Positions 10,386 through 31,983 of a stretch of DNA of 64,000 bases are shown piece by piece; the stretch's first letter is position 1; each line of letters opens with the position of its first letter. The notes under the pieces are model-generated. The model was not told the origin of the DNA. It ran no database searches and saw only the letters and a program-made list of their open reading frames with translations. This DNA comes from Adineta ricciae (lineage: Eukaryota > Rotifera > Eurotatoria > Adinetida > Adinetidae): assembly GCA_905250025.1 (NCBI GenBank), contig CAJNOJ010000012.1, positions 620,001 through 684,000 of the forward strand. The letters run 5' to 3'. The position numbers and the translations under genes were made by a program.

Positions 10386-10643
10386 ATGCAGTCTTATACT
10401 CGTCAATTGGTTTCTAGTATCATTCGTATGCCAGTCCTTGAACATTACAATTATTGCACTTTTAGTGACAAAGGTGAACGCAATGTGGAAGAGAAAAAAG
10501 ATGATAATCTGATTTGTTGTGAATGGGAAGAAGCCATCATAAGAGAGCAACGATCGCCCGATATTCCATTTGATTTGATGGAAAAGCAGACAATCAACCA
10601 AGTGCACAACCATTATCGTGATAATCAACGATCTTCATCTTGA
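10386..10643 (+). CDS. Hypothetical 85-residue acidic protein, allele 1
   Basis: An open frame of exactly 85 codons is kept in both haplotypes (second copy at 13203). By my reading about nine residues differ and no indel occurs, while the flanks do carry indels. The product is hydrophilic and charged, without signal peptide or membrane segment; its middle contains EEKKDDNLICCEWEEA. The opposite strand is also open here, so coding is not proven. No family is recognised. It could alternatively be an upstream non-coding part of the FKBP locus. Confidence 0.35.
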   Translation: MQSYTRQLVSSIIRMPVLEHYNYCTFSDKGERNVEEKKDDNLICCEWEEAIIREQRSPDIPFDLMEKQTINQVHNHYRDNQRSSS

Positions 10644-11113
10644 ATACATAGAACTGCTCGCACCCATTTTGTATTATCTTACAGATTTAATATAAGGATT
10701 TGACAATAAATCAATTAATTGAGTGCGCTTGAGCATCGATTTAAAATATCCGATGGTTGCATTTATAGTTATTCTATGTAACTATCTTCAATGAAAAATA
10801 TGTTTACACTGATGAAACTATTCCTTCTTTACTATTCCCATTGTGTACTCAATTGGGAGAGTCCTCCATCAAAAGATGTCACCATACCGTATGAAGTTGA
10901 TCGTTTTAATCGCACTTGAAAATATCTAGGAAAATTAAAATTAACGAAATCAATGAGATGAAAAAAACGCCTTTCTAAAATGTACAGGATTCGATCGCGA
11001 AGTGTATGGAGGATCGATTATATTGAAATCCAATCGATGATCTACATATACACGGTCATTGATGCGTGACGCACACGTATTATGAGCAATTGTCTACGAG
11101 AAAGATTTGATCA
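10644..11113. other. Upstream region of the FKBP gene
   Basis: No gene is supported. A frame that is open in the second haplotype (13593-13844) is broken here by a short indel, so it is probably not coding. Confidence 0.4.
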
Positions 11114-12505
11114 ATGACAGAAAAGCAAGTAGAAGAAGGAAAATCTCCGTTTCAAGGAGAAGATATATCTCCAGAGAAAGATGGAGGTGAATATTCCTAA
11201 CGAGTTTGTCTTCTCTCAGATTCTACATTTGTTTTTCATATTTCAAGGTTTAGTCAAAGAAATCGTTCGTCAAGGTAATGGTGATGATAAACCAACGTTT
11301 GACGATCAAGTGACGATTCATTATGTTGGAAGCGAACTTGATGGAAAAGTTTTCAGTGATAGTCGAGAACGCGATGAGAAAGTTACTTTCAGTCTCGGCA
11401 AAAATGAAGTCATACCAGCGTGGGATCTCGGTGCTGCGAGCATGAAGCGTGGAGAGATTGCTCGAATTTTTGCTCGACCAAAATATGCTTATGGTTTGAA
11501 AGGAGAGAAAAAGTATCGCTCCGCGACTAGTGTCATTTTTGAAATTGAATTGTTAGATTTCGTCGGTAATTGTTTTAATCTTTTCTTTCATCTTAGATTA
11601 CATGATTTGATGTGTTGTTAGGCAAAGATATCAGTGACGAAAAAGATGAAAGTATTATCCGACGAATTCTTCATCGTGGTGTAGGACGTGAATTTCCGAA
11701 CGAAGATGCAACGGTAGACGTTCATTTGAAAGGAACTTATCAAGATAAAGTCTTTGATGACCGGACAGTTCAATTCGTGATGGGACTAGGTTTTTTGCAG
11801 CAGATACCTTTGAGGTAAATTGTAAACAAAAGATTATATTAGTTCTTTTTTTTTCTCCTAACGTTTGATAGTATCGAACATGCTGTTTACAAAATGCTTC
11901 GCAACGAGAAATGTCAACTGCTACTAAAAGGAAAAGCATTACAAGGTTTAGATCAAATCTCTGTTTCAGTAGATGGCTTAGTTCAATATGAAATAACATT
12001 ACTTGACCTTGAACGGGTAAAACATTCGCAAAAGTACTATTAAGAAAAAGCATGATGAACTCTTCTAGTTGGATTCAGAACAGATACTAACAGATAAAGG
12101 AAAACTTCTTCAATCTGAACTATTGAAATCTCGTGCTGACGATCTTGTCAAAGTAAGACAAACTCTTTTCATTTCTTGACTCGATTTTATCACTAAATCG
12201 CAGAAAGGGCATTATCAGCACGCGTTGAAACGATACCAAATGGTCACTCGTCTTCTTGCATCAGTTACATATCCAGATAAAGATGACCGAATCAAGTCAC
12301 GACAAGTGCGAATCGCTGCACAGTCCAATATCGCATTGTGCTATCTCAAATTAAACGATTATCTTCAATGTAAGACTGCATGTGACCAAACGTTAGCATT
12401 GGATGCGAAAAACGAAAAGTCTCTGTTTCGTCGCGGTCAATGCCATTTAACATTCAGGAATTTCGAGCAAGCAAAGAAAGATTTCGAAGCAGTCATCAAA
12501 ATCAA
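11114..12505 (+). CDS. FKBP52-like peptidyl-prolyl isomerase, allele 1 (5' part, cut by gap)
   Basis: Exons 11114..11186, 11248..11565, 11622..11814, 11872..12016, 12069..12152 and 12204..12505 correspond one-to-one to the complete allele at 13932-15627. The last exon stops at the N at 12506 inside the TPR region. It continues at 28668 after a 79-nt overlap: the merged exon 6 is 302+218-79 = 441 nt, exactly the length of the other allele's exon 6. The truncation is therefore an assembly effect, not a mutation. The first intron has donor GTGAAT where the other allele has GTAAAT. The first FKBP domain keeps FDDQVTIHYVG and the VIPAWD motif. Confidence 0.85.
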
Positions 12506-12506
12506 N
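12506..12506. other. Assembly join (single N) between blocks A and B
   Basis: Left of the N the sequence is in FKBP exon 6. Right of it the sequence restarts at a point equivalent to 9692. A one-base gap stands for a scaffold join of unknown size. Confidence 0.95.
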
Positions 12507-12553
12507 CAAGGACAGCCATAGACCATCGGGCAACATGGAAGATACATACTCAT

Positions 12554-13202
12554 TTTTATAGGAACTGCGACGATATCAGTTTTTCAGCGAACTCGGTGCA
12601 TATAGAAACATGTCCACGCGAATATTTATATAGTCACAAGAAGTTGGCACAACAGCCAAATATTATCCTGTATACAATAACATCTGATCTTTGCCCATGA
12701 CGTACATATGGAAGGCGCACACGAATAGTATGGCCTTTTTTTCATTCAATAGACAACATCGAAGGTAAATTAATAGAACATGCTATTATTCATTCAGGCA
12801 AGTCGAGGACATAAACATCTCATTTGTTTTTGTATGTACTGTCTAACTGTAAATATTTTGGTATTGTTAATGTTGTTATGGTGTTTATGATCAATTCATG
12901 TGTGAATTTTGCGCACAAGTTCGTAGAGCATCGATTATCAAATTGGTTGTGATTGTACTTTTAATGTTATACATAAAACAATTGCACGTATTCCTTTTCA
13001 TGATTTGTTATTTAAGCAGGGCGTCGAAACACTTCAGATTAAAGAGGCATATTTATTCTTAGATTAGAACACTTTGATCGTTGGATTAGTCACTCGTATT
13101 TATAATTACGCCACCCAAGATAAAACCAAAGCTATCATGCTGTATACTACCGTCATCATCTATATATAAGTGAATATTTAGTGTGAAAGAATACAGAGAG
13201 AG
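12554..13202. other. Intergenic, second copy of 9739-10385
   Basis: No gene is seen. It holds the TATA box of the Cys-rich ORF whose body lies beyond the gap at 12506. Confidence 0.4.
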
Positions 13203-13460
13203 ATGCAGTGTTATACTCGTCAATTGGTTTCTAGTATCATGCGTATGCCAGTCATTGGGCATTACAATTATTGCACTTTTAACGACAAAGGTGAACGCAA
13301 TGTGGAAGAGAAAAAAGATGATAATCTGATTTGTTGTGAATGGGAGGAAGCCATCATACGAGAGCAACGATCGCCCGATATTCCATTTGATTTGATGGAA
13401 AAGCAGACAATCAGCCAAGTGCAAAATCATTATCGTGATAATCAACAATCCTCATCCTGA
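13203..13460 (+). CDS. Hypothetical 85-residue acidic protein, allele 2
   Basis: Second haplotype copy of the frame at 10386, with the same length and the same start and stop. Both silent changes (Glu GAA/GAG, Arg AGA/CGA) and replacements occur between the copies. It lies about 470 nt upstream of the FKBP start on the same strand. Function unknown. Confidence 0.35.
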   Translation: MQCYTRQLVSSIMRMPVIGHYNYCTFNDKGERNVEEKKDDNLICCEWEEAIIREQRSPDIPFDLMEKQTISQVQNHYRDNQQSSS

Positions 13461-13931
13461 ATACATAGAACTTCTCGCATCCATTTTGTATTCTCTTATT
13501 GATAGAGTATAAGGATTTGACAATAAATCAATTAATTGAGTGCACTTGAACATTGATTTAAAACATCCGATGGTTGCATTAATAGCTATTCTATGTCACT
13601 ATTCTCGATGGAAAAGATGTTTACACGGAAAAAATATCTCTTTTTTACTATTTCCATTGTGTACTCAATCGGGAGAGTCCTCCATCAAAAGATGTCACCA
13701 TACCGTATGAAGTTGATCGTTTCATCGCACTTGAAAATAGCTAGGAAAATAAAAACTAACGAAATCAATGAGATGGAAAAAGACGACTTTCTAAAATGTA
13801 CAGGATTCGATCGTCAAGTGTATGGAGGATCGATTATCTTGTAATCCAATCGATGATCTACATATACATGGTCATTGATGCGTGACGCACACGTATTATA
13901 TGAGCAATTGTCCACGAGAAAGATTTGATCA
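13461..13931. other. Upstream region of FKBP allele 2
   Basis: An 83-codon frame at 13593-13844 is open here, but the equivalent stretch of the other haplotype is frameshifted, so I do not call it a gene. Confidence 0.4.
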
Positions 13932-15627
13932 ATGACAGAAAACCAAGTAGAAGAAGGAAAATCTCCGTTTCAAGGAGAAGATATATCTCCAGAGAAAGAT
14001 GGAGGTAAATATTCGTAACGAGTTTTTCTTTTCTCGGATTCTACATTTGTTTCCATATTTCAAGGTTTAGTCAAAGAAATCGTTCGTCAAGGTAATGGTG
14101 ATGATAAACCAGCGTTTGACGATCAAGTGACGATTCATTATGTTGGAAGCGAACTTGATGGAAAAGTTTTCAGTGATAGCCGAGAACGCGATGAGAAAGT
14201 TACTTTCAATCTCGGCAAAAATGAAGTCATACCAGCGTGGGATCTTGGCGCTGCGAGCATGAAGCGTGGAGAGATTGCTCGATTTTTCGCTCGACCAAAA
14301 TATGCTTATGGTTTGAAAGGAGAGAAAAAGTATCGTTCCGCGACTAGTGTCATCTTTGAAATTGAATTGTTAGATTTCGTTGGTAACTGTTTCAATCTTT
14401 TCTTTCGTCTTAGATTATAGGATTTGATGTGTTGTTAGGCAAAGATATCAGTGACGAAAAAGATGGAAGTATCATCCGACGAATCCTTCATCGTGGTGTA
14501 GGACGTGAATTACCGAACGAAGATGCAACGGTAGACGTTCGTTTGAAAGGAACTTATCAAGATAAAATCTTTGATGACCGGACAGTTCAATTCGTGATGG
14601 GACTAGGTTTTCTGAAACAGATACCTTTGAGGTAAATTGTGAACAAAAGATTATAGGAATACTTTTTTCTCCTAACGTTTGATAGTATCGAACATGCTGT
14701 TTACAAAATGCTTCGTAACGAGAAATGTCAACTGCTACTGAAAGGAAAAGCATTACAAGGTTTAGATCAAATTTCTGTTTCAGCAGATGGCTTAGTTCAA
14801 TATGAAATAACATTACTTAACCTTGAACGGGTAAGACGTTCGCAAAAGTACTGTTAAGAAAATGCATGATGAACTCTTCTAGTTGGATTCAGAACAGATA
14901 TTAACAGATAAAGGAAAACTTCTCCAATCTGAACTATTGAAATCTCGTGCTGACGATCTTGTCAAAGTAAGATAAACTCTTTTCATATCTTGACTCGACT
15001 TATCATTGAATCACAGAAAGGGCATTATCAGCACGCGTTGAAACGGTATCAAATGATCACTCGTCTTCTTGCATCAGTTACATATCCAGATAAAGACGAC
15101 CGAATCAAGTCACGACAAGTGCGAATCGCTGCACAGTCCAATATCGCATTGTGCTATCTCAAATTAAACGATTATCTTCAATGTAAGACTGCATGTGACC
15201 AAACGTTAGCATTGGATGCGAAAAACGAAAAGTCTCTGTTTCGTCGCGGTCAATGCCATTTAACATTCAGGAATTTCGAGCAAGCAAAGAAAGATTTCGA
15301 AGCAGTCATCAAAATCAATCCGTCGAATGTTGCTGCTGAACAACAAATCGAGCAATGTGAACAACAACGTAAACAGCATGAAGCGAAGCATAAAGAGTCG
15401 TATCAGAGTTTTTTCAACGACTCGTCTCGGGCGAGCCTGTTTGAAGTGGATGAAAAAGTGCGTTTGGAATGTTTTTATTGAGCATAGATACAAACATTTT
15501 CTTCTTTTTCTAGTATGAACAAGTAAAGAACAAAATGCAAGAGAAAAATGCGCTGAAATCTCTTGGACTCGAGCCAATTAGTCTCGAATCTCTCGGTATT
15601 CATCCTCCGAAGCCACCACAACGATAA
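13932..15627 (+). CDS. FKBP52-like immunophilin (two FKBP domains plus TPR), allele 2, complete
   Basis: Seven exons (13932..14004, 14065..14382, 14439..14631, 14686..14830, 14883..14966, 15017..15457, 15514..15627) sum to 1368 nt, 455 residues, matching the ~459 residues of vertebrate FKBP4/FKBP5. The first FKBP domain follows a short acidic N-terminus and keeps the isomerase landmarks (DDQVTIHYVG, FSDSRERDE, VIPAWD, YAYG). The second domain (from exon 3) is more divergent, as in FKBP51/52. Exon 6 encodes TPR helices (SNIALCYLKLNDY, LALDAKNEKSLFRRG), the Hsp90-docking module of this family. Role by family: Hsp90 co-chaperone and prolyl isomerase in the cytosol. The last intron uses an unusual GTGCGT donor, present in both alleles. 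Confidence 0.9.
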
Positions 15628-15879
15628 AATGACTATAAACAAACGAATACGAACTAATTCTTTCTTTTATCAAATGATTATTTCGAAATAAACGAATTCG
15701 CTGATCAAAGTAGTACAATCATTTGTATTCGATTGTTTCCTGAATCACTGACATACAGATACTATCCATAGTAAGAGTGAGAGGGACGTTCAACAGAGAT
15801 GAGGCAGTACCAACCATACCATTACAGTCGCCTATAGGAAGAGCAGAACAATGTAAATGAGCTGATATATAACGATTTG

Positions 15880-16832
15880 TTATTCACCCTCAATTGTCAT
15901 TCCGGTTGATTGGCCAAGACGCCAACGTACAATGCGATTGTTTACTGTATCGGCGATATAGAATGTACTAGTATTTTTCGAAACATAAATACCATACGGC
16001 TCATTCAATTGAGTGTAATCAATCGAAAAACTGAATAGCATATTCATATCGCGCAGAAAGATCTTACTTCGCTCCTATGCCAGCTCCATTTCCCCCAGCT
16101 ACATCTGTGGTCATGGGTGACCCAAACGAATATCGAAGTATTCGGTGGTTGAATGTGTCGGCAACATAATCGAATCCATTGTCTTCGTTCAATGTAATGT
16201 CCTGAGGATTAAAAAGATGAAGACTGTCATTACCTGACAAACGGGTCTCACCAACCAATAGTGTGCCTACAAGTGATGTAGCATTTCAGAACATGACACG
16301 ATTATTAAAATTGTCAACAATGTAAAAGTTGCCGCTTGAATCGATACAAAAAGAAGCAGCACCTTCAAATTGTGTCGTACTTGCTCCACAGGTACTACCA
16401 AAAAGTGTGGTGGGTATTAGTGAGCCATTATGATACCGTGTCATCAGACAAAAGTCACTATCGATTACAAACAAATCGACAAGTTTTTATCATTACACAC
16501 GCAACACTGGGATGTTGTTCATGTCGGTAATTAACATGGACTTATCGCTATTTATTGTAATACATGAAGGAAAATCCAACTCAGACAGTGAACTACCCGC
16601 TGAACCATTTGCATATCCAAATACGGTAACACCCGTAAGATTTAGACTCACGAAACACAAATTAAACATTTTGACTCCATATATAAAACTATAATTACCT
16701 GATGTACAATTGAACGTAATTGTCTGCATACTCTGCGTAGTATTTTCTACTTTGGTTGTTGATGAGATATAATCAATTTGTCTATTTGAATTAAATACGC
16801 ATAAGAAAGCTGACAAACAACCATCAAAACAT
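15880..16832 (-). pseudogene. NHL-repeat secreted protein, allele 2, disrupted
   Basis: Compared with the copy at 29318-30545, this allele has a stop at codon 3 (ATG TTT TGA where the other reads ATG CTT TCA). It lacks roughly 200 nt after the signal peptide and lacks about 85 nt between the first NHL blades near 16490, with a frame change. The remaining NHL segments are recognisable in three frames: near 16560-16640, 16290-16470 and 15880-16258. Each lesion alone would stop a normal product. A shorter product from an internal start is possible but would lack the signal peptide. Confidence 0.7.
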
Positions 16833-17168
16833 TCTGGAAAAACAGAAACGAGTGAGAGAATTTACTAACTGAATAGAATATGTACTATTTTATATGTGAA
16901 GAGAAACCAAGGCGCTGTTTTTTACATCGTTTGAAGTAGATGAAACAGTACAACAAATGGTTTTTTCTTATTCGATGTATAGAAATGTGATCGTCAAAAT
17001 AAAGAACTCTCATCTCCACAGAGAAACGGCTTTTTTCAATTTCATCGAGCCTGCATAGTCATAATGGTAGACAAGTAGTTTATTCAACAACTAAATACAA
17101 GATCAAACGCTCGAAAAGCATTGCTTGCTCTCAGTTAAATGTTATTGACGAACTATTTTTTAAAACGT
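16833..17168. other. Intergenic
   Basis: Spacer between the NHL gene and the 3' end of the beta-sandwich gene, both on the minus strand. Nothing is recognised in it. Block C carries an extra ~35 nt near 30715. Confidence 0.4.
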
Positions 17169-18072
17169 TTATTGATACAAATAAAAGTTCATATTATCAA
17201 CATCACCATTATTGTTCGTTCCAGTATATCGCGTTATGTTCACCAGAACTGTCGCTGATCGAGCACCGGAGGGTACGAATCCTGATGTTTGTTTCGGGAT
17301 AAACGAAGATATATTTCCTCGATCAGCAGCAAGTACAGGTCCAATGCGAGCGATGCTACCAACCATTTGGTTATTTTGATCAAGAAACGTTAAATCGATC
17401 ACAGCACTATCGTTCTGAACAGTGATACCACCAAGCCATGCTGATAGATTAAATTTCACTGTTTGACTGTCAAGAAGACCAGAGTCCACTTGATTAGTTA
17501 AATTAATAGTTTGCCACATGGATGTCATCGCGGATTGATAACCCATAATATAGCAAAGACCACGTTCATTCTGCGGTATAATTGTCGAGCTCTGGTCGCC
17601 AAAAAAAGTGTTGTTATAATATATTTGTGAGATAGGACCGCTGACATTCCATCCCGGCGGACTGGCCGTTTCATTGGCGAGTGAACAGGTGCCGGTTTCA
17701 CCATTGCCATTGGTAATCAAATTAACGTTGAATATTGCTAAACATACAACGATGCATTTGGCATATCATCAAAGACAGAACGTGACTAACCGATAGTAGT
17801 AGTTGCTGTTGTTGTTGCGGCAGTAGAAGTATTTGTAAAATGTGTTGAAGTTTCGATTATTGGGACTGCCTTACGTAAATACAAGGTGAGAAATGTTGCA
17901 AAAGTAATTCCGGAAAGTAATGCTCCAAGAATCAGGCCCAAGCAGACGGGAGTGGTACGACGAGTGCTATGAATATTTCATTAAATTTCTCTGTGAATAT
18001 AGAAAAACATCAGACAATTTACTGAGAAGAACGACTTGTTTCTGGCCAGATGCTGTGCTGTTCGTTACTCAT
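17169..18072 (-). CDS. Type II membrane protein with extracellular beta-sandwich domain, allele 2
   Basis: Exons in transcript order are 18072..18023, 17966..17791 and 17737..17169, summing to 795 nt and 264 residues. The short N-terminal cytosolic part is basic (Arg-Arg before the membrane). One membrane span follows (CLGLILGALLSGITFATFLT), then a short Thr-rich stalk (seven Thr in TTTATTTI and its neighbour), then a ~185-residue domain rich in Asn-glycosylation sites. That domain begins LITNGNGETG..., contains PPGWNVSG, and ends DVDNMNFYLYQ. The layout (NG-ETG start, W near the front, DNM/DNV near the end) resembles carbohydrate-binding jelly-roll domains. That assignment is inference, as is cell-surface location. 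Both alleles are intact with identical exon lengths. Confidence 0.7.
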
Positions 18073-18300
18073 TGTTGCATTTGATTTTATGAATTATGTC
18101 GTTATGCTCGACACGAGTACCACTATAGAAATTTATTCATCGCATTCATTACCATTTTAATCGAAAGATATCTTCGCGAGTTTCTCTTTTGTATGAATTC
18201 ATTCAATTGAAAAATGTATTTGTTATTCTCTTGAGAGAGCAATCACATGACCATAAAGTTATGTGGAACACCAATAAAAAAGGTACTTATAGGTGGAAAG

Positions 18301-19101
18301 CAAGAACTATATTATTGATACATCCGTTGTCATAACCGTCATCGACGCCAGTTATTGTTTGATTAGCTCGATCAAAGAACGTTAGTGATATTCGAGCATT
18401 ATCACCTTGAGTTTTATAGCTGCCAACCCAAGCCGCAACATTAAGCCTTATCGCTTAATTATCAATAAGACCCGGATCGACATAATCCATAATGTTGCCC
18501 ATTTGCTACATGGTGGTCGGCGCAGTTATTTGTCCATAGAAATAACATCGACCACGATCTCTACATCAGAGAAAAGATAAAACAAAGATTACTCAAATTT
18601 ATTTGCTTTACCTTGGCCCCGGTGAAGCGGGTGTTATACCATCAGGATTCGAAATATTAAAATGTATCTGTATTATTGATGAGTTATTGTTCCATCCATG
18701 TGGGCTCACAACACTATCATCTGTTGCACATGGACCACTTTCCGCATCACTGTTGATTAACACATTCTCTGTAGGTACTACGTAAAAGATTTGAAAAGAG
18801 TAGCATTGCATAGAAAACGATTCATTAGCTCACTTAGATCAGTAGTTCGATTTTTAAAAGTAAGCACACTGCTGCAATTGTCGGGTATCAGTTTCCAGTT
18901 TCCTTGTTCGAGTAGTGCATAATGAAGAATACACGTTTGATTCTTTTGATTAAAACCCGCTGTGATACACCAACGGTATGCATAGCATTGACAGGCACGA
19001 ACATGTTGCGTTGGTACCGAAACGATCTTTAATATTGGAGAAATATTATTTAACGAAATGAATACAGTGAATCTATATACAGTCAGATCAACTGTCAACA
19101 A
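18301..19101 (-). pseudogene. Broken paralogue of the beta-sandwich membrane protein
   Basis: Reading leftward there is a Cys-containing segment (18778-19101). A domain follows that parallels the intact neighbour: NSDAESGPCATDD and SPHGWNN match its ITNGNGETGTC and SPPGWN. The segment after an intron (about 18551-18603) has two in-frame stops, one near 18508 and one in the TTAATT at about 18456, and there is a frame change near 18790. It lies in the part of block B with no counterpart in C or D because of the gap at 31983. It could be a tandem duplicate of 17169-18072 that has decayed. Confidence 0.5.
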
Positions 19102-19406
19102 CGTTGCAAAACAAAAAAGAATACCATCATCAACCTTGCCAACATTCTCCCAACTGTTTGATTACTAAATGGAAGTGGTTTGGTGTGCAAGTCGTTTTTA
19201 TTCATTTATATATTCAAACACTGTTTTTGATTTACTGATGGTCAAACCATCATTGAATGTTTTATATACTTCGTGCATTCGATAGCAAAACGGTATCGTT
19301 TAACAAAAATTGACTACGGAATTTTCTGCATTGACTTCAAGTTTTCCTCGTCGAGCGTCTTCAATCAACTTTTTATCGATGAAAGATGAATAAAGAAAAA
19401 AGAGAA
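19102..19406. other. Intergenic next to the tRNA
   Basis: No gene is seen. An oligo-A/G run (AAAGAAAAAAGAG, about 19391) directly follows the 3' end of the minus-strand tRNA. The pol III terminator would be read here on the minus strand as a T-rich stretch. Confidence 0.4.
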
Positions 19407-19478
19407 TAGCAGCGAGTAGTTTCGATCTACCGACCTCTGAGTTATGAGCCCAGCACGCTTCCACTGCGCCACGCTGCT
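19407..19478 (-). tRNA. Initiator tRNA-Met (CAT)
   Basis: A 72-nt cloverleaf on the minus strand. The acceptor arms AGCAGCG/CGCTGCT pair fully, with discriminator A. The anticodon loop CTCATAA has CAT at 19446-19444. The anticodon stem ends in three G's on its 5' side (CTGGG), an initiator feature. The T-loop reads ATCGAAA instead of TTCRANY, with A54 and A60, the hallmark of eukaryotic initiator tRNA. G-U pairs occur once in the anticodon stem and once in the T stem. Internal A and B boxes are intact. No intron. Confidence 0.93.
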
Positions 19479-19558
19479 CTCGTATATTTTCACTTTTCTT
19501 TCTGGTTCTCTCGTTTATTATGATATAGAATAATTTCGATACGATTAAATACATCATA

Positions 19559-22500
19559 TCATTCAAGTTTGATTCTTGAGATATCGTCCGAGGTGATTTG
19601 GTCGAGAATGTGTTGTTTTCTTTCGGGCGTAAGTATGTTACCTTCAAAATTTAACATTTTGAGTACCTATATCAAAAGACAGAAATCAATCAAGACAAAC
19701 ATAACAGACTGTATATTAACTTGGTTCGTCTTCAATGTGTCGAGAAAACACTGAACACCTTGTAAGCCAATGTTATTGTTTTGCAAGTTTAACGTTACAA
19801 GTGTCTGCAACGAATAATCCATACATATATCATGAAAAGATACAGGATTTACTTTATTGATCGATAAAGCTCTAGCCAAAGAATCAGCTCCATCATTATC
19901 GATCCTATTCCAACCGAGTTCGAGTGTTATTATTGTCTATGTTAAATCGTGTTTATATTTGCACAGCTCGATTATTACTCATACTGTATTTGTGCGTAAA
20001 GCGAACGCTAAACGCTTTGTAAGTTTAGCACCAATTCTATTACGCTGAAAATTCATTGTCGTTAATGCCTATTTAATATCATATGTAGGGCATGATATGT
20101 TGATTGAACAGAGCAAACCTGAAGATTTATCAATCTGTCAGCAAAAATTCGCTTCTTCTGATCTTTGAGTGAATCTTTTGTTAATTTTGCCATCGTTAAA
20201 GCCTGTATTATTTGAATGAGGTCATTCGGTTCTGTACATAACACATGATCTTACTGTGTTTTTCCCAAGCGCGTTGATTAGTTGTTTCGTTGGTCGAACG
20301 CAAATTTGTTCATCTCCAAGACTCAATGTACTCAACATCTAAAGCGAATAAATTATTCAAGAACGATTGAAATTTGCTCGTACCTCTGACAGCGCTTGAT
20401 TATCGTTAGCCGTTTTCTCAAAATTCAGTCCCACAATAGGCTAGAATTGAATAAACGCACAGAACTCTAAGCGACGACACTTCGCTATACTCATACTGTG
20501 ATTTGACCTAAAGCTTCTGCTATACGCTTTGCAGCTTTCTCCGATATATGATTTCCGTCCAAATTCAGCTGAACTAGTGTCTAAATTTTCGTAAAATAGA
20601 CAATTATATCGTAGGTTTCATTTTACAGTATTGCATCTCAATCCGTAGACTAAGCGCTCGACACATTTGTCTGTAAGAGAATTGTTTCGTAGGTTGATGT
20701 TGACGATTGTCTAAATGAATCTATTCGAATGTATTCCGTAACAGAAATCAGCTGATGTTACGCGATCGGTACTCAATTCACAACTAAACCATTCCATTTG
20801 CCTATCATTAAGGTGAGTATTTTGAAAATTTAACACTGAAATTCTCTGAATGGAAAAGCGCAGTTCTTCTGACAATTGTCGAATAAAAATTCCGTTTACT
20901 GAATCATAATGCATTAGGGCACCAGCAAGAGATCGTGCAGCCAGATTGTGAAAAGTGTTGTTTTCAAAATTCACTGTTGTAAAAGGCTGAATGTATAATC
21001 TGAGAGATAGTCCATTAATCAGAAAACGTGCTATACCGGACAGTTATAAACAGCATACGTTAAACTATTAACTGCTTCATTATTGTTTGAGTGACATCTC
21101 AAATAGAGTATTGAGAGTTTCTACAAGGAATAGTAAAGGTATATATAACGTGTAAATATCGAATGTTATTTACCGTATTTATCCGTAAAATTTTCCAAAT
21201 ACATATTATTCCTTCGGAAGAAATATGGTTGCATTCAAGATTTAATTGCGTCAGTATCTGAATTATGTAAAGTAAAGCCAAACAAGTTAACAACGGATCT
21301 TACTTGATTTGTTTCCAATGCGTCACATAGATGCTGTACATGTGTATCATCAATCTTATTGTAGCTGAGATCAAGACTCTTTAGTGTCTGTTAAAAGCGG
21401 ATTTAAATGTATATTTTGTTGACGTATGCAAGAATTACTCGCTTACGGTACTGTTTTGTAAAGCATCAAGTATAAGGTGTATCTCTGCATTCGTGATTTG
21501 ATTGTGACTAAGATCTAAGCTTGTGCATGTCTTTATTGAACAAATACGAATGTACAAGAGATGGGCTAATGATCACTCACATTAATTTGATGTCTAAGCA
21601 TAGGTAAGTTTCGTGCTACATCAACAAGATTTCTGTTATCGTCAATGTACAATTCCAGTAATGTCTGTATTCAATGGAAGAAAATTATCGGAGGAAGATG
21701 TGCCTAAATATACAATGTAGCTCTTTTACTGTATTATGTGATAATGCATTCAATAAATAATATTCGCCATCGTCGCCGATATGATTGCCACGAAGATTTA
21801 AAGTAATAAGTGTCTATCGGATTAGACGTCTTAAATAGAAATCTTTGATTAAAGACTCGTTCTCTTACAAAGCTTTCCTTCACGACATCAGCTAAGAGCC
21901 GAGCATCAGAATTCCGTAGTTTACAGCTACTTAAATCCATTGTAGTTAGTGTCTAGGTAAAACACATACTTCTATCGGCCAAATCGAACTAAGAAATTTT
22001 TCTTATTACACTGTCTTTCATAGCATCAGCTAAAAGTCGAGTCAATGCCGTATATTCTATTTTGAAGCCACTCAAATTCAATGTAGTAACTGTCTAAAGA
22101 ATAAATTTATAGATAATATGAGACATAATCAACATAAAGAACCCTTTATACTTTCATCTGATCAACTATACCCAAGATATGTCGTGCCATCCAAAGACAA
22201 TCGTTCTCATAACTAAGAATCAAGGTAGTTAAAGTCTAAGCATTCGAAAATTGTTCTGTATGTCAAAAAAGAACACAAATAATCTTGTCACCGTATTTTT
22301 ACGCAGAGCGCTGAATAAATGGAAAGTTCCTTCGTCACGTATACGATTCTCATACAGACCCAGCGTAATAAGCGTCTAAGTTAAACGATAGAGATTGCTA
22401 TAGATACATTGAATAATTAAGTTTAACTGTATTATGTTGTAATGCATTGGATAGATATCTCGCTCCATCATCGCCAATACAATTGTATGAAAGGTCAAGT

Positions 22501-23422
22501 GTAGCCAAAGTCTAAATCCAATTGTATCGACTGTCTGATAAGATTTGCATATACAGAGTTCTTCTCACAATATTAGCTTGTAAGGCATCGGCTAAATATT
22601 TTGCTCCTTCATCATTAATATGATTTCTTGGAAGATCAAGTGTAACCAATGTCTGAATTTAACGGCGTCTTTTTATTTAATTACACATCTAGATAGAGAA
22701 TTTCTCTTACTGTATTATGTTGTAATACGTTCGCCAGACGGATCACTGCATAATTGTCAATAGAATGATCTAATATGTGATTATATCTTCTACAGCCGTT
22801 GTATTTCAATGAACAAAGTGTCTATATAATGGGCACAAAAATAGTGTTCTTTTTTGTATGCGAAAACTATTCGACTAAATCTTATCTTCCACAGAAAATG
22901 TCTATATTGAAAAAGTTTGTAGATAGAATGTTTCGATAGATACCTTGTTGTATTTCAATGCATTGGCGATAAATATCAATTCTCTGTCGGTAATGCACAT
23001 ATCAACCTCAAGATGTATCGCAGTAATTGTCTGTAATCATCGAGGATAGAAATGTTATGCGAAGAGAGTGATTCAGACAATAGATCTTACTGAATTGTGT
23101 CTTAGTGCATAGCCGATTTGTTGTACCTGCTTTATAGGATGGTAGATAGTGAAGCAAAGATTCATCGTTTTCTGTGATGAATAATAAAGAAAACACATGG
23201 TTTTATGATATGAGGATAGTAGTTCTGTTTAACTTCGTAAATATATCCTTTGGAAATGTGTCAACTTACTTGATATGGCTGATAAGTTTTGAGAACTATA
23301 TTCAATCTTTGACAAACACCTTCCAATGATAGAAAAATAGAACGATGTTCAAGACGATCGAGTATACGATAGACAATTTCAACTGGTAACGTATGAAGAC
23401 TTAGAGAAGATTTCGATGACAT
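19559..23422 (-). CDS. F-box protein with about 24 RI-type leucine-rich repeats, allele 2
   Basis: Transcribed leftward from ATG 23422 (start of MSSKSS, kept in both alleles). An N-terminal F-box is seen as LPVEIVYRILDRLEHRSIF followed by VCQRLN. Next come about 24 short exons, most encoding one leucine-rich repeat. Two measured exons (22652..22569 and 22511..22428) are each exactly 84 nt, 28 codons, phase 0, and start with the TLxxLDLxxN core; introns are about 55-60 nt. The repeat consensus TLATLDLSYNCIGDDGARYL is the ribonuclease-inhibitor/NLR type. The protein ends ISRIKLE at 19559. Role by family: F-box proteins recruit substrates to SCF ubiquitin ligases, and the LRR horseshoe would bind the target. 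It could instead act as a sensor like NLR LRRs; no NACHT domain is seen. Confidence 0.75.
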
Positions 23423-23865
23423 CAGTAAAATTTCGAAGTGATTCTTTTCCTCAAGATAAACTCGCGAGCGACACACAATCTCATTGCTGATTTAGGGGTC
23501 AATCACATCGAAAAAATAATGTTGAATTAAGAAACATGATTGACCCTTTTACATAGCAACGCGAATTGTATTGGTTAATTCGGCATTAACTTTTCTGGTG
23601 TGAAAGGGGTCTTAGATTCGTTTATGAAACCAATAAAAAGCAAATTTGTTCCTGAGCATAAAAATAGACACCGACGGTACCTGTCCATATCAAACATGTT
23701 ATTTCGAAATTAAATCTACAAGATTCAGTTTAATTCTCTTTCTAAGACAACATATCAATGGACAGACAGGTGTGTCTGTGCGTACATCAGTGACATCTCT
23801 CAATTCTACTCATTTTTCAAGCGTAGTCGATAATGCGTGTTTTATTCGTGATAATTAGACACATC
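23423..23865. other. Intergenic
   Basis: Between the F-box/LRR start and the aldo-keto reductase remnant. Block D lacks about 90 nt of it (near 23494-23590). No gene is seen. Confidence 0.4.
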
Positions 23866-24396
23866 GCTACACAGTTAGATCTAGTTCTTCTTTGGAAAAG
23901 CGCGGATAGATTCTTCGAATATTGTTCTCTTCAAAGTCATCGGAACTTTTGGATCAATTCGATGTACGTAGTATAGAGCAACGTAATCGAGTTGAAGATG
24001 TCCAAGACTTTTGATAATCGCGTGATGAACATATTCTGCATCGCCACGAAACGAAAAAGATTTTAAGTCAGCAGAGACTACACCGGCAAATTTGATTGCA
24101 AGAAATACCTAATTGTGAAAGGTTCATGACTTTATTCAAAGATCAACGTGCGAGCTATACTGACTTTTTTGACGCTGTTGCGGATATTTTTTGAAATACT
24201 TCCCTAATAAATCTTCGCTGTCGCCGTAGACATCGGTAGTATCGAAATAAGTGCAACCGAGTTCGATAGCACGATCCAAGATCTTGAATCGTTCCTCGTC
24301 CGAAGCAACAGCTCCATAGCAAATAGATAAGCCCATCATTCCAAGGCCAATCGCCGATACGTTTGGACCATTTTTACCTAATTGTCGTTTAGGCAT
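23866..24396 (-). pseudogene. Aldo-keto reductase, allele 2, deleted
   Basis: The N-terminal exon is recognisable (MPKRQLGKNGPNVSAIG, DTTDVYGDSED). It carries one extra T in the homopolymer before the splice donor (near 24160; six T versus five at 37154). Between 23939 and 23950 the sequence jumps over 268 nt present at 36664-36931 of the other allele; the junction is the 12-nt ATCGGAACTTTT that flanks the missing piece. About 300 nt of the 3' end is also gone (near 23880-23905). The Arg codon that is a stop in the other allele is intact here (AGA). The product cannot form a TIM barrel. Confidence 0.8.
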
Positions 24397-24881
24397 TGTC
24401 AGACAAGAAGAACTTTCGAAATGTGCAATTGTAACACTTATTAGAGATCCTAATTTGACTATATATATACTCCAAAGGATAAAAACAAGGATGAACGCAT
24501 TCAAACTATGAGTCAGAACAAAGAAAGATTATTTTTCTGTTTTTTTGATATCATGTCACAATAAGAAAGAAAGAAAAACAACCATATTCCTTGTCAGTAT
24601 ATTATCTACAATAGCTGCCTGCATCATCAGGAGCGAATATGCATAAGCTTCTTTCGAACAATATTCGTTCGGATCATATATAATTGGCTGATGATGCTTA
24701 TATATGTGTTTCGCTTTCTATACGTGTGTGAAGCACGAATCAATCAAATAAACAAATACAAAAGTCTTATTTATTTTGTTAACGAATCAATCAACATCAC
24801 AATACGGCGGTGCAGATCAATGGCCTACACTTGTTTTGCTTTGATTATACCATTTATTACCGTTTGCCTTGACTTTCGGCA
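24397..24881. other. Intergenic
   Basis: A TATA-like element (CATATATAATTGG) lies near 24678, upstream of the membrane-protein remnant. Nothing else is recognised. Confidence 0.35.
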
Positions 24882-25819
24882 ATGATCGTCGCATACAAAG
24901 ATGTGAAATTAAGGAGTAACAAAAACCGAGACAAGGTGCAAAGTCTTTTGTTATTCAACCGTCTTGATTGCTATTTAATATTAGCAAATCTGATTCTGTT
25001 TATTGTATTGTTTCACTATGAATTATTTGAAATATACTGCTTTCATCCGACTATAAAATCGAATATCGCTCTGTGTTATACATAGAGCTAAGGGTAAACG
25101 GTGTAAGCAAGTATATAGATCAAAATCAAGCTCCCATCACTGATCCAGGAAACACCCATGGTGATAAATATGTTGACAAAAATGTTATCCGCGGTCGACG
25201 AAGCGGTATATTTTACCGTATACTTCGTGCTGTTTCGCTTTTGCTTCAAGCTGCTCTATACAGTGCGGGATCTTCGCTGTATTTCAAGAATTCCGTCGAC
25301 AAACTCAATGCATTACGAACAGGTGCAGCGTTGTTCGTCACTGGTACCTCCTTTCGATTGATTCTAGAATTGACAAGAATTTTCGAAGATCAAGTCGGTG
25401 TATTCCTCTATAATAAGTATCGAAGCTTTTGTATATCCAGATTATACAGTTGTTGAAGGAATCATACGATCTGAAGTTATAATCACTGATATCTTCTTGG
25501 TCATTGCTGTTGCATTCGATCTCACCTGTGCGATCTTATTTTTTCCCAGACTTGCATTTACACTCGGAAAAGTACTCTTCATCGTTAGTTCTGCTATTTT
25601 GTTGGTCACTAACTTGTGGATAATCTATCAATAGGCTGGGATGAGAAACGCATTCCGGGTTTTTCTGCAATTGCTGCCATCTTTTTCCTTCTTGGTTTAA
25701 AACTTTACTCACCTCAGTATAACACAAATCCATATAGAGTAGTTGGACTATACGCAGATGATGCAGTCAACGTCTTTATTGCCGTTATATTAGCTTCCAT
25801 AAATGCTTGTGCTGGTTAA
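24882..25819 (+). pseudogene. Degenerate multi-pass membrane protein, allele 2
   Basis: Several hydrophobic helices occur in sequence but in different frames: 24882-25085 (LILANLILFIVLF), 25073-25456 (LLQAALYSAGSSLYF, ALFVTGTSFRLIL), 25455-25634 (ITDIFLVIAVAFDL, VLFIVSSAILLVTNLW) and 25616-25819 (FSAIAAIFFLLGL). The only joins I can find need introns of under 30 nt, and the other allele lacks the matching AG. It may be a decayed four- or five-span membrane protein or a gene with exons I misplace. Family not recognised. Confidence 0.4.
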
Positions 25820-26257
25820 TAGTCACGAAAACATATTCGCTATCCTAGTAGTGTTGAGCTTTTTCATCGTAGGACATTCTTTAAATAGGTAGTGATGAAT
25901 AACGATATTTATTCGAGTGAGAATGTTAATCGACAACGTGTTGGAGGTGATATAAAGTAAGTCAAGCGTTGTTTTTTTCCCACTTAAAAGTCAGGAGCGA
26001 TTTAGTTCGTGTCAAATGACTCGCGCAGACATAGTATCATGACTTTCATGTTAGTATATGGAATTTGACTAGATATCAGTTACACTTATTTTTCTGGGAA
26101 TGACTTTTTGTAAATGGTATAAATTCAATCTAGAATTAAAAGTTAATACAAATGTACATCGTGATAACGACGATTTATACGATTGATGTAGCATGTGTCA
26201 TGTTTGCGTTCTTTGTTATTGCTTGTGTTTTGAAAGCCACTTCCTTTTACACATACG
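25820..26257. other. Upstream region of the glutamate-receptor gene
   Basis: No gene is seen. It is conserved with the other haplotype apart from small indels. Confidence 0.4.
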
Positions 26258-26265
26258 TATATAAA
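26258..26265 (+). promoter_or_regulatory. TATA box, glutamate-receptor allele 2
   Basis: TATATAAA lies 66 nt upstream of the receptor ATG and is conserved at 39293-39300 in the other allele. Confidence 0.5.
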
Positions 26266-26323
26266 CAGTGTTTCATGTATTGATTTGTATATTCAACACA
26301 AAAATCAGGTAACATAGTCGTCT

Positions 26324-28666
26324 ATGTTCACTGTGCAACAAACAGTATTTCGTTTGCTACTGCTGTTACTTGGTGTTCTATACAAAGTAAGGATACAAGC
26401 AACATCCGAGTCAAACTGGCCAGTTAGCACATCGAATACGAAACTACTCGGTTTCTTCCCTCAACAATCGAACAATAAAACTTACAATGAAACCTGGATC
26501 ATTCATTGTATGTCCATGTTTCGTGCAGCTATTCTTCTATCGCATCAATACAATATGATGTACCAAGGCGAACTGATTGGTTATGAAGAGATCGTCACAG
26601 GCGAAGATATTATGTTGACAATTGATGGTACATGTAATAAAGTGTCCGCATCGAATATCATCGGATTTGTTGGTCCAGCATATTCGAGAGAAGCACGATA
26701 TCTTTCGTCATTTGCACACCGATTGGGAATAATCAGTATTTCATACTCGGCGACGAGCCCGCAACTATCGACCATTGATAGTCAAGCTTTCTTTCGTGTA
26801 GTCCCATCAGATGAAAACACTGCACTGGGCATAACATTATTATTCGAACGGTACAAGTGGAAATCATCGATCATTATGCATCAAAATGATGAGTTTGGTA
26901 ATGATGGAATGGAGTCACTAAAACAGCAATTCAGTGAAGCGGATATCAGAACTCGAGAGACAATTCGACTCGGCATGAATGTAACCGATTATCAAATCGA
27001 TTGGGTACAAATATTAAAAGCGAGTTATTCGCGTATTGTTGTTCTCTGGGCCAATGAACAGTTAACAACGATGGTATTAAAGCAAGCTATGGAGGAAGAT
27101 TTACTGGGATCAGATTTTGTTTGGATATTGACGACGAATATGCCATTGACTAGTTTCACGCTACGAGAAAGACAAAAGTTAATTGGAATTCTTACGATCG
27201 AACCTATGCGCGCGGATGCGATAGAACAGCCAATCAATACAACGTTACTGAATCAAGCGTATGACATATGGAAACATTATCAACCTGAAACATTTCCAGG
27301 AAATGGTAATGTTAGTGACTTTGCATTATTCACCTTTGATGCAACATGGAGCTTTCTGTTAGCCTTGCAGAAACTTTGTACCACTGAACAATCGTGTTTA
27401 CAGATTAATAATGCTTCAAATTGTTATTACCGGCAGTTTTCCCGTTCTGAAATCTATTATCATTTGATGCGGTCCACATCGTTTTTAGGTGTATCGGGTG
27501 AAATTAGATTTTCTAACAGCACAACGGATCGTGTTGGTCATCAATATTATGTTGTTCGAAATATTCAGTCCATCGATGTACAAAACAAAACTATTGATCA
27601 TAAGCCAGTTTTGAAATGGGATACTGAATCATCTCAGTGGGCACAGTACAGAAACGAATCTGACGACATTGTTTGGCCAAGTCAAATAACAAAGGCTCCA
27701 GCAGATTATAAACTGATCAGAGGTAAGTCATTGTTAATATTATAGTCCATGTTGAACAACTATTTTGCTACATTTTAGGAACACGATTACGTATGGCAGT
27801 TATTGAAGCTACGCCATTTATAATACTGAAAAATCCCGCTATTTCGTACAGTGGAATGACAGGCAATTACAAGAAGATTGAACTGAGCGAATTCGATGGA
27901 TTTTATAAAGATATACTGGTTTATTTACAAGATAAAATGGGCTTTGTTCCGGTTGTCATGTTGGCTAAACCGACAGTACAATATGATCAGTTGGTAGAAG
28001 GGGTAGCAAACGATCTATTCGACACTGTAATGACGACAATCACTATAACTTCTCGACGAACTGCATTGGTTGATTTATCTATCGCCCTGATGCCGAGTGC
28101 CATTCGCGTTGTTATACGAAAATCCCAATCTAATGATTTTGATCTGTTCTTCTTTTTGGCGCCATTTTCATGGGAATTATGGGCAGTTATCGCAGCTACG
28201 ATAATATTTACCGCAATTTTATTATGGTTCCTTGGAAGGACACGTCCCAAAGGACGGAACCGTGATGTTATTAGGCATGGAATATTCGAACGTATTCATT
28301 ATGTATTATGTGCTATGCTCGGAAGAGATCGAAATGGAGAGAATAGATCAAGTGCTGAACAAGTTCTTATATATGGTTTGCACGTTATCCAAGTTGTTCT
28401 ATTTTCATTGTATACAGCTACTATATTATCGTTTATAATAGCAAATAACTCGACTACTATTGTGTCAGGAATCGACGATATTAAAAATGGTAAAGTCGCA
28501 CCGAATCGAATTGGAATTGTAAGTGGTTCTTCCATCGAATATTACTATCTGAATACGATTTCACATGGGAAAAAAGATTATTACGAAGTGAAAACATTAA
28601 ATGACATTTACCAAAGTTTGATCAATAAAGATATTGACGTAGGCCTTTGGAGTAATCATTCGATCA
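26324..28666 (+). CDS. Ionotropic glutamate receptor-like subunit, allele 2 (3' end cut by gap)
   Basis: Exon 1 is 26324..27722 and exon 2 27779..28666, with a 56-nt GTAAGT intron. The gene is open to the N at 28667; the complete allele at 39371-42168 shows that the last ~150 codons are missing only because block B ends. By my reading about 20 of 473 exon-1 residues differ between alleles. All landmarks up to the second ligand-binding half are present: signal peptide, amino-terminal domain with GFVGPAYSREA, S1 with SRRTALVDLS, three membrane segments. The apparent continuation past 28667 is an artificial fusion to FKBP sequence. Confidence 0.88.
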
Positions 28667-28667
28667 N
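28667..28667. other. Assembly join (single N) between blocks B and C
   Basis: Left: glutamate-receptor exon 2. Right: FKBP exon 6, identical to the end of block A. The two sides are not neighbours in either haplotype. Confidence 0.95.
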
Positions 28668-29055
28668 TTCGTCGCGGTCAATGCCATTTAACATTCAGGA
28701 ATTTCGAGCAAGCAAAGAAAGATTTCGAAGCAGTCATCAAAATCAATCCGTCGAATGTTGCTGCTGAACAACAAATCGAGCAATGTGAGCAACAACGTAA
28801 ACAGCATGAAATGAAGCATAAAGAGTCTTATCAGAGTTTTTTCAACGACTCGTCTCGGGCGAGCCTGTTTGAAGTGGATGACAAAGTGCGTTCGGAATGT
28901 TTTTACTGAGAGTAGATACAAACATTTTCGTCTTGTTTTAGTATGAAGAAGTAAAGAACAAAATGCAAGAGAAAAATGCGCTAAAATCTCTTGGACTCGA
29001 GCCAATTAGTCTTGAATCTCTCGGTATTCATCCTCCGAAGCCACCACAACAATAA
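28668..29055 (+). CDS. FKBP52-like protein, allele 1, 3' part
   Basis: Continues the gene cut at 12505: rest of exon 6 28668..28885 and last exon 28942..29055, ending LESLGIHPPKPPQQ. The first 79 nt duplicate 12427-12505. It encodes the end of the TPR region and the C-terminal tail of the co-chaperone. Compared with allele 2, the last residue is Gln instead of Arg. Confidence 0.85.
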
Positions 29056-29317
29056 AATGACTATAAAAAAACGAATACGAACTAATTCTTTCTTTTATCA
29101 AATGCTTATTTTGAAATAAATGAATTCGCTGATCGAGGTAGTACAATCATTTGAATTCGATTGTTTCCTGAGTCACTGACATAGAGATACTATTCACTAC
29201 TATCCATAGTAAGAGTGAGCGGAGCGTTCAAAAGAGATGAGGCGGTATCAGCCATACCATTACAGTCGCCTATATGAAGAGAAGAGCAATGTAAATGAAC
29301 TGATATATAACAATTTG

Positions 29318-30545
29318 TTATTCACCTGCAATCGTCATTCCGGCTGATTGGCCAAGACACCAACGTACAATGCGATTGTTTGCTGCATCGGCGATATAGA
29401 ATGTACTAGTATTCTTCGAAAGATAAATTCCACACGGTTCATTTAATTGACTATAATCAATCGAAAAACTAAATAGCATATTCATATCGCGCAGAAAGAT
29501 CTTACTTCGCTCCGATGCCAGCTCCATTTCCATCAGTTACAACTGTGCTCACAGCTGAACCAAGCAAATATCGAAGTATTCGATGGTTGAATGTGTCGGT
29601 AACATAGTAGAATCCATTGTCTTCGTCCAATGTAATGTCTTGAGGATTAAAAAGATGAAGACTATCATTACCTGACACACCAGTCTCACCAGCCAATAGT
29701 ATACCTACAACTGACGTAGCATTCCAGGGCATGATACGATGATTAAAATTGTCAACAATGTAAAAGTTGTCACTTAAATCCATACAAAACGAAGCAGCAC
29801 TTTCAAATTGTGTCGTACTTGCTCCACAGGTGCTACCAAAAAGTGTGCTGGGTGTTAGTGACCCATTGTGATACTGTGTCATCAGACAAAAGTGACCATC
29901 GATCACAAACAAATCGACAAGATTTTTATCATACACAGCTCGTCGAGGTTGCAACCAAGTACCAGATGAAGCAACTACTACACCGCTAGTTTGATTTGGA
30001 TACACACGCAATACTCGGATGCTGTTCATGTCGGTGATTAACATAGACTTATCACTATCTATTGTAATACACCAAGGAAAATTCAACTCAAACAGTGAAC
30101 TACCCGCCGGACCATTTGCATATTCAAATACGGTAACACTCGTAAGACTTAGACTCACTAAACATAAATTGAACATTTTGACTCCATATATAAAACTATA
30201 ATTACCTGATGTACAATTGAACGTAGTTGTCGGTATACTCTGTGTAGTAGATTCTACTTTGCTTGTTGATGAGAGATAATAAAATTAGCTATTGGAGTGA
30301 AAAACCCATGAAAAGTACGTATCCTTGACAGTTGCATTTGTATAGAACTGGCAAGTGTGATTGTCGAAACAATTGAATACCGTTATAGTCGACGATTTTA
30401 ACATTGTACAGATGCACGTTTCTCGTGTGCCATTTCCTGTGCTTGAATACAGCGAGGTATGCACAGTAAATATTTTAGGTATCAGTTGAACGGATACCGA
30501 ATACACACTTGGTGTGAGAAAGCTGGCAAACAACCATGAAAGCAT
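29318..30545 (-). CDS. NHL-repeat secreted protein, allele 1 (possible premature stop)
   Basis: Begins at ATG 30545 with a signal peptide (MLSWLFASFLTPSVYSV), then a Cys/Thr-rich segment with N-glycosylation sites, then NHL blades. Examples are GSSLFELNFPWCITIDSDKS, NFYIVDNFNHRIMPW, and FYYVTDTFNHRILRY. The last exon (29318..about 29465) joins across a ~48-nt intron to give GAGIGANFSIDYSQLNEP and ends at TAA 29318. An in-frame TAA near 30287, where the other allele has CAA, separates the signal-peptide segment from the NHL part. Unless an intron removes it, this allele is also broken. Role: extracellular beta-propeller, ligand unknown. Confidence 0.6.
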
Positions 30546-30920
30546 TCTAGAAAAACAGAAACGAGTGAGAAACTTTACTAACTGAATAGAAGATGTACTA
30601 TTTTATATGTGAAGAGAAACCAAGACGCTGTTTTTTACATCGTTTGAAGTTGATGAAACAATAAAGCAAATGATTTTTTCTTATTGGACGTATAGAAATG
30701 TGATCGTCATGTGATATCAAGTGCTGGAGTGATTGCATTATCATCTATAGAATAAAGAACTTTCGTCTCCAAAGAGAAAAAGCTTTTTTCAATTTCATCG
30801 AGCCTAAGTAGTCATAATGGTAGATAAGTAGTTTATTCAACAACTAAATACATGATCAAACGCTCGAAAAGCATTAATTGCTCTCAGTTAAATGTTATTG
30901 ACGAACTATTTTTAAAACGT
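30546..30920. other. Intergenic
   Basis: Spacer between the NHL gene and the 3' end of the beta-sandwich gene. Nothing is recognised. Confidence 0.4.
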
Positions 30921-31824: not shown

Positions 31825-31982
31825 TATTGCATTTGATTTTATGAATTATGTCGTTATGCTCGACACGAGTACCACTATAGAAATTTATTCATCGCATTCA
31901 TTACCATTTTAATCGAAAGATATCTTCGCGAGTTTCTCTTTTGTATGAATTCATTCAATTGAAAAATGTATTTGTTATTCTC

Positions 31983-31983
31983 N
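31983..31983. other. Assembly join (single N) between blocks C and D
   Basis: The left side corresponds to 18230 and the right side to 19411 of block B, so about 1.2 kb of haplotype 1 is missing here despite the one-base gap. Block D starts inside the tRNA gene. Confidence 0.9.

What the first reader, a model, noticed from the sequence alone, without database searches (positions are those of the whole stretch)
12507..28666. A 16-kb allelic haplotig is inserted in direct order inside the other haplotype
Block B matches A (9692-12505), C (28668-31982) and D (31984-41713) collinearly and in direct orientation, with divergence of a few percent. Each boundary is a single N. Tandem duplication would need three independent breaks that coincide with Ns; a bubble in an assembly graph explains all of it. 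Direct or inverted allelic copies on one scaffold have been used in debates on bdelloid genome structure, so this locus is a warning: it can look like colinear duplication while being an assembly product.
Basis: partly seen in the sequence, partly recalled or inferred. Interest (0 to 1): 0.75.

Follow-up and report, generated by a model that had tools for sequence, protein, structure and literature searches.

The report
Two haplotypes shuffled into one scaffold
The apparent 16-kb duplication is best explained as an assembly error in which contigs from the two versions of one chromosome region, probably of a bdelloid rotifer, were laid end to end, so genes look duplicated when each is just the second allele.

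Summary
Block B (12507-28666) matches A, C and D collinearly and in direct orientation at 94.8, 92.6 and 94.3% identity, and the junctions A|B, B|C and C|D are single Ns. The assembly-product reading is supported and can be sharpened. B is not one inserted haplotig but one step of a staircase. In 264 kb around the window, contigs split at 19 gaps fall into two interleaved haplotype lanes; summed match length is 92.5 kb direct, 0.1 kb inverted. Of 18 contigs in the staircase, 12 could be placed, and 65 of 66 pairs lie in order of start. Exact matches of 121, 221 and 321 bases recur at contig ends, as in a de Bruijn graph; 26 of 38 ends have their last 100 bases repeated exactly, against 2.7% of background. 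Four window probes each find two close copies (88-97%), both on this scaffold. This is a heterotype false duplication, a known kind of artefact. No reads were available, so depth and linkage stay untested.

The parts
1..12505 (.). Window part of contig c03 (C12:598846-632505), haplotype lane 1; its last 2,814 bases are block A (9692-12505)
   Evidence: Split at N; A = B 12507-15318 at 94.8%; 1-1722, 1997-3639, 3668-4768 and 6922-8304 match c02, outside the window
12506..12506 (.). single-N junction A|B
12507..28666 (.). Block B, contig c04 (C12:632507-648666), haplotype lane 2, 16,160 bases
   Evidence: Collinear direct matches to A, C and D
28667..28667 (.). single-N junction B|C
28668..31982 (.). 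Block C, contig c05, lane 1
   Evidence: Matches B 15240-18230 at 92.6%
31983..31983 (.). single-N junction C|D
31984..64000 (.). Window part of contig c06 (C12:651984-688079), lane 1. 31984-41713 is block D, allelic to B; from 41715 on it is allelic to the next lane-2 contig c07 (C12:688081-723561)
12285..12505 (.). Last 221 bases of A, exactly identical to B 15098-15318
15098..15360 (.). 263-base tract of B: first 221 bases = end of A, last 121 bases = start of C (28668-28788). Read as a homozygous tract carried whole by B alone; A and C are then arms of the other haplotype
   Evidence: the 79-base A/C overlap (12427-12505 = 28668-28746) follows by arithmetic
28446..28666 (.). Last 221 bases of B, exactly identical to D 41493-41713
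18075..19539 (.). 1,465-base stretch of B: first 156 bases = end of C, last 129 bases = start of D; the middle (18231-19410) has no copy in lane 1, perhaps collapsed
   Evidence: the collapse is inferred
19407..19478 (-). tRNA-Met (CAT) in B; the allelic copy in D (31984-32048) begins right at the N and matches model positions 4-67 of 71 only
26318..28666 (+). Glutamate-receptor-like gene (ANF_receptor, Lig_chan), B allele, its frame running into the N at 28667
39365..42168 (+). The same gene, D allele, whose frame continues past the end of the match

Best explanation
Heterotype false duplication. In a region where the two alleles differ by about 5-7%, a short-read de Bruijn assembler produced separate contigs for each haplotype. 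It broke them where the alleles share tracts longer than the k-mer, and left shared tracts whole in only one contig. A scaffolding step that ordered contigs by position along some guide then concatenated contigs of both haplotypes into one scaffold, in order of their start coordinates. A gap step ran up to about 100 bases into the pads and left one N. The true structure is two homologous chromosomes: lane 1 ...A - C - D..., and lane 2 ...c02 - B - c07.... Shown here: the allelic matches, the staircase, the start ordering of the placed contigs, the repeated exact overlap lengths and the copy number of four probes. Inferred: the lane assignment, the k-mer size (121), the pad length (100), the class of scaffolder, and that unmatched short tracts are collapsed homozygous sequence. 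The confidence given is for the artefact itself; for the start-sorting, guide-based scaffolder in particular it is about 0.6.
For: Collinear direct matches end at Ns. In 264 kb, 18 of 19 gaps are single Ns and one is 98 Ns; summed match length at 150 bases or more and 85% or more is 92.5 kb direct against 0.1 kb inverted. Of 18 contigs c02-c19, 12 could be placed; 10 of 11 adjacent pairs and 65 of 66 of all pairs are in order of start. Exact end tracts of 221 bases occur at 7 contig pairs, 121 at 4, 321 at 1; 221 = 121+100 and 321 = 121+200. 26 of 38 contig ends have their terminal 100 bases exactly repeated, against 2.7% of 204,682 100-mers of C12:577422-784000 (three of the 26 ends lie just outside that background). 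Four probes find two close copies each, both on C12. The probable homoeologs of A, 66-67% over about 480 bases, are a 92.2% pair on separate scaffolds C185 and C145. RaGOO's paper states that contigs are sorted by start then end of the primary alignment and padded with Ns (passages). The bdelloid paper PMC7943196 used RaGOO for the reference assemblies of some species, and SPAdes with final k 121 for its separate 'maxhap' set (section).
Against: No reads, depth or Hi-C. 12 of 38 contig ends show no exact 100-base tract, among them the starts of B (73 bases only) and c07. Other end-tract lengths, 33 to 262, occur too. Lane mates c07 and c09 overlap by 265 bases at 97.0%, not exactly. c02/c03 break the start order by 8.15 kb, six contigs (c14-c19) were not placed, and c18 starts about 90 bases before c17. 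Families PF00118 and PF00133 show no two copies close together on one scaffold, and 60 kb of C1 has no gap and no direct duplicate of 200 bases or more, so the error is regional. In the paper, RaGOO and k 121 belong to different assembly sets, gap filling is stated only for other species, and no scaffolder is stated for the candidate A. ricciae sample.
Confidence: 0.95

Rival explanations
1. The blocks are a real series of direct segmental duplications on one chromosome.
For: They are direct, collinear and on one scaffold.
Against: A staircase of successive partial copies over about 200 kb would need many independent duplications with block edges at Ns. Contig ends fall in exact tracts of recurring lengths. 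Four probes find no further close copy in the held genome.
Confidence: 0.02
2. Same artefact, but made by a mate-pair or noisy long-read scaffolder (such as SSPACE or SSPACE-LongRead) rather than by reference-guided sorting. Such links hardly tell alleles 5-7% apart, and overlapping contigs receive a single N.
For: The single-N convention for overlapping contigs (recalled; one search gave only a listing). PMC5916493 used SSPACE, GapFiller and SSPACE-LongRead for the 2018 A. ricciae assembly (section). The c02/c03 order exception.
Against: The near-perfect start ordering, the 221 = 121+100 overlaps and the 98-N gap fit fixed 100-N pads better.
Confidence: 0.35
3. The two lanes are not alleles but homoeologs (whole-genome-duplication copies), or sequences from two different clones in the sample.
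For: Divergence of 5-7% is high for alleles. The sample itself is not known here.
Against: More distant copies, probably homoeologs, exist separately at about 64-67%. The allele pairs give dS of 0.04-0.13. Two probes elsewhere (C1:412-416 kb, C12:521-525 kb) find only one close copy in the held contigs, which a two-clone mixture would not readily give.
Confidence: 0.05

Closest known systems
Heterotype false duplication (PMC9516828, passages read)
   Same: Both alleles assembled in one scaffold as if paralogs, with gaps between the duplicated pair; such errors lie in regions of higher heterozygosity
   Different: Here contigs of the two haplotypes interleave over about 200 kb instead of one local duplicate; read-depth, k-mer and read-pair criteria untested
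Linked homologous blocks in bdelloid assemblies (A. vaga 2013; A. ricciae 2018; PMC5916493, section read)
   Same: Allelic blocks on one scaffold; two direct (tandem) cases were reported in A. ricciae, and many collinearity breaks span N gaps
   Different: The A. vaga cases are mostly palindromes (23 of 25 blocks); here the long matches are direct and the junctions are contig ends
RaGOO-type reference-guided scaffolding of uncollapsed contigs (PMC6816165, passages read)
   Same: Contigs sorted by start, then end, of the alignment and padded with Ns
   Different: Residual gaps are 1 or 98 Ns, so a later gap-filling step must be assumed; use of this tool here is not documented

Membership tests
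Heterotype false duplication | Both alleles present as separate copies in one assembly, no further close copy elsewhere | tested here: met
   Two close copies (88-97%) for 4 of 4 window probes, both on C12; only the best candidates are scored, and the shortest contig sampled, the last, is 10.1 kb, so very short contigs may not be held
Heterotype false duplication | Assembly gap between the copies | tested here: met
   Single N at the block edges of A, B, C and D except 9692 and 41713, which lie within contigs as the reading requires
Heterotype false duplication | About half read depth | not testable with these tools
   No reads held
Heterotype false duplication | One-copy k-mers and discordant linked or paired reads at the junctions | not testable with these tools
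   No reads held
Reference-guided start-sorted scaffold (RaGOO type) | Contigs in order of start coordinate | tested here: met
   65 of 66 pairs among 12 placed contigs; 6 of 18 not placed; one exception of 8.15 kb, and an offset of about 90 bases at c17/c18
Reference-guided start-sorted scaffold (RaGOO type) | Constant N pads | tested here: inconclusive
   18 single Ns and one 98-N run; 221 = 121+100 suggests filled 100-N pads
True tandem segmental duplication | Breakpoints inside continuous sequence, copies repeating one unit | tested here: not met
   Staircase, not one repeated unit; junctions are contig ends

The most novel reading that the evidence does not exclude
Many contig edges mark real tracts of allelic identity (263 bases shown, about 1.5 kb inferred) inside alleles that differ by 5-7%. 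The 54 kb next door (C12:520-574 kb), gap-free and without a partner in the stretch read (one 4-kb probe of it has no close copy in the held genome), would be a large loss-of-heterozygosity block. If so, this scaffold is a ready-made record of gene conversion and loss of heterozygosity in a bdelloid rotifer, once the two lanes are separated.
Probability: 0.3. Interest if true: 0.4.

Novelty: not a real feature. Interest (0 to 1): 0.15.

Why it matters
Allelic copies on one scaffold and breaks of collinearity have been used as evidence for ameiotic genome structure in bdelloids (PMC5916493, section read). This locus shows how an interleaved scaffold would create false tandem duplicates, false gene gains, genes cut at the Ns and false collinearity breaks. 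A simple screen, exact end tracts of recurring k-mer-like length beside single Ns, could flag such places without reads.

Tried and rejected
Homoeology as the source of the two lanes: rejected, more distant copies lie on other scaffolds at about 64-67% in their longest matches. One isolated inserted haplotig: rejected, the staircase goes on past both sides of the window. Genome-wide generality: not supported. In PF00118 and PF00133 (89 and 27 matches listed, lower bounds) no two copies lie close together on one scaffold; two different PF00118 genes lie on C31, 286 kb apart. 60 kb of C1 has no gap and one self-match, inverted, 663 bases. Two probes outside the staircase have no close second copy.

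The species is not proven. NHL-repeat proteins, an oxidase of bacterial type and close pairs plus distant copies fit a bdelloid (recalled); GC is 37% in the window and the genome is held as 130.46 Mb. Adineta ricciae ARIC003 (135.6 Mb, GC 35.5%, gaps 65 kb, N50 283.8 kb at rank 129) is near but not exact: here contig 125 is 287.0 kb and contig 129 is 277.3 kb, and the last, contig 1033, is 10.1 kb (20 lengths sampled).

One paper search on bdelloid plus L-amino acid oxidase plus horizontal gene transfer returned none. The A. vaga chromosome-level paper is not held. Searches for pad and single-N conventions gave listings only; passages were then read in the RaGOO paper and in one paper that used it. 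A search on A. vaga, chromosome-scale and palindromes gave a listing only. On rereading, I lowered nothing in the main confidence, but raised the mate-pair/long-read scaffolder rival from 0.3 to 0.35, because RaGOO and k 121 are stated for different assembly sets.

Full report
OBSERVATION. The window has exactly three non-ACGT positions, single Ns at 12506, 28667 and 31983. Self-comparison gives direct, collinear matches A 9692-12505 = 12507-15318, C 28668-31982 = 15240-18230 and D 31984-41713 = 19411-28666. Identity without gaps is 94.8, 92.6 and 94.3%.

SCALE. The window is C12:620001-684000 of a genome held as 130.46 Mb in 1,033 contigs. With I read 264 kb (C12:520001-784000). It has 19 gaps, 18 of one N and one of 98 Ns. 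From about 579 kb onward it is a staircase of direct matches, for example 663258-681955 = 689747-708436 at 92.9% over 18.8 kb. Summed match length (at least 150 bases and 85%) is 92.5 kb direct and 0.1 kb inverted; 83% of C12:577422-784000 and 91% of the window have a partner (a few local tandem repeats are included). At a looser cut two short inverted matches, 237 and 172 bases, appear among c13-c15. Contig c00 (520001-573829) has almost no partner (0.4%, its end overlap with c01). The last part, 752996-784000, is only 52% covered.

TWO LANES. Splitting at gaps gives contigs c00-c19. I assign c03 (with A), c05 (C), c06 (D), c08, c10 and c13 to lane 1, and c02, c04 (B), c07, c09, c11 and c12 to lane 2; this assignment is mine. 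Within a lane successive contigs mostly abut, overlap or leave short gaps; between lanes they are allelic. One lane-mate overlap, c07/c09, is 97.0% over 265 bases, not exact. Of 18 contigs c02-c19, 12 could be placed on a common axis with matches of at least 200 bases, and 65 of 66 pairs are in scaffold order of start; the exception is c02/c03, by 8.15 kb. Six contigs (c14-c19) were not placed, and c18 starts about 90 bases before c17.

GRAPH SIGNATURE. Exact matches at contig ends repeat a few lengths: 221 at 7 contig pairs, 121 at 4, 321 at 1; other lengths (33-262) also occur. Longer exact repeats away from contig ends (320, 291, 233 and 194 bases) are within single contigs, c07 and c03, so between paralogs; between alleles the longest away from an end is 173. 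A's last 221 bases equal B 15098-15318 and C's first 121 equal B 15240-15360; together they make one 263-base tract in B, and the 79-base A/C overlap is the arithmetic result. B's last 221 bases equal D 41493-41713. 26 of 38 contig ends have their last 100 bases exactly repeated, against 2.7% of 204,682 positions in C12:577422-784000. That neighbouring contigs of a de Bruijn assembly share a k-mer-length overlap is recalled; k = 121 plus 100-base extensions into 100-N pads is my inference. Twelve ends do not fit, including the start of B (73 bases).

COPY NUMBER. Window 25511-26500, the glutamate-receptor region 39365-41700, A 10000-12400 and the oxidase 44599-46638 each have two close copies in the held genome, itself and one at 88, 97, 94 and 95%, both on C12. 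A's next relatives lie on C185 and C145: they are 92.2% identical to each other over 2.2 kb and 66-67% to A and B over about 480 bases. I read them as the homoeologous allele pair, on separate scaffolds; the match to A is short, so this is probable, not proven. Two probes outside the staircase (C1:412001-416000 and C12:521001-525000) have no close second copy. So both alleles survive in this region while the two other places tested are single-copy, by true homozygosity, by removal of one allele, or because its contig is not held; I cannot tell which.

CODING. Both alleles of the receptor's first part are open (475 codons), dN/dS 0.18. The oxidase pair gives 0.23 with dS 0.13. The receptor's channel part gives 0.76 on few changes. 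The B allele of the receptor runs into the N at 28667, and D's tRNA-Met begins right at the N at 31983.

MECHANISM. Best reading: short-read contigs of both haplotypes, sorted by start coordinate and padded, then partly gap-filled. RaGOO sorts contigs by start then end of their primary alignment and pads with Ns (passages). The 2021 bdelloid paper used RaGOO for the reference assemblies of several species and SPAdes with final k 121 for a separate 'maxhap' set; GapCloser is stated only for other species (section). Scaffolding of A. ricciae ARIC003 is not stated in what I read. A mate-pair or long-read scaffolder is the main rival, for this step only.

KNOWN KIND. This is heterotype false duplication (PMC9516828, passages). 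Of the four primary characteristics that paper lists, one (gaps between copies) was tested and met; half depth, discordant read pairs and one-copy k-mers need reads. Nowell et al. 2018 already noted that many detected collinearity breaks span scaffold gaps, and reported two direct allelic blocks in A. ricciae (section).

VERDICT. An ordinary though instructive artefact: observation confirmed, interpretation supported with wider scope, interest low.

Noticed in passing
44599-46638 (+): Single open frame of 680 codons strongly matching PDB 3we0, L-amino acid oxidase/monooxygenase (E 1e-216; its bacterial source is recalled), so a likely horizontally acquired gene; both alleles are open and the DNA search found no third copy.
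   Followed up: partly
42770-43604 and 57568-58515; C12:689150-690095 and 704059-705004: Paralogous pair about 15 kb apart within one contig (57519-58535 matches 7tm_1). In contig c07 the two copies are 98.9% identical over 946 bases, in c06 only 90-96% in pieces, which suggests gene conversion in one haplotype.
   Followed up: no
C12:573831-608500 (outside the window): The haplotypes may have different left neighbours: c02 chains by exact 221-base overlaps to c01 and c00, while a 4-kb probe from the first part of c03 has its close copy near the start of scaffold C105 (85-91%, inverted); c01 also matches C105. A false or real collinearity break.
   Followed up: partly
4629-7343: Long frames open on both strands (904 aa on +, 155 and 637 aa on -, stop to stop) over degenerate tandem repeats (39-base spacing near 6626-7030) with strong GC skew; the 904- and 637-aa frames have no Pfam match.
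   Followed up: no
18231-19410: 1,180 bases present only in B, bounded by tracts identical to C's end and D's start; perhaps a collapsed homozygous tract, which includes the last bases of a tRNA-Met gene.
   Followed up: partly
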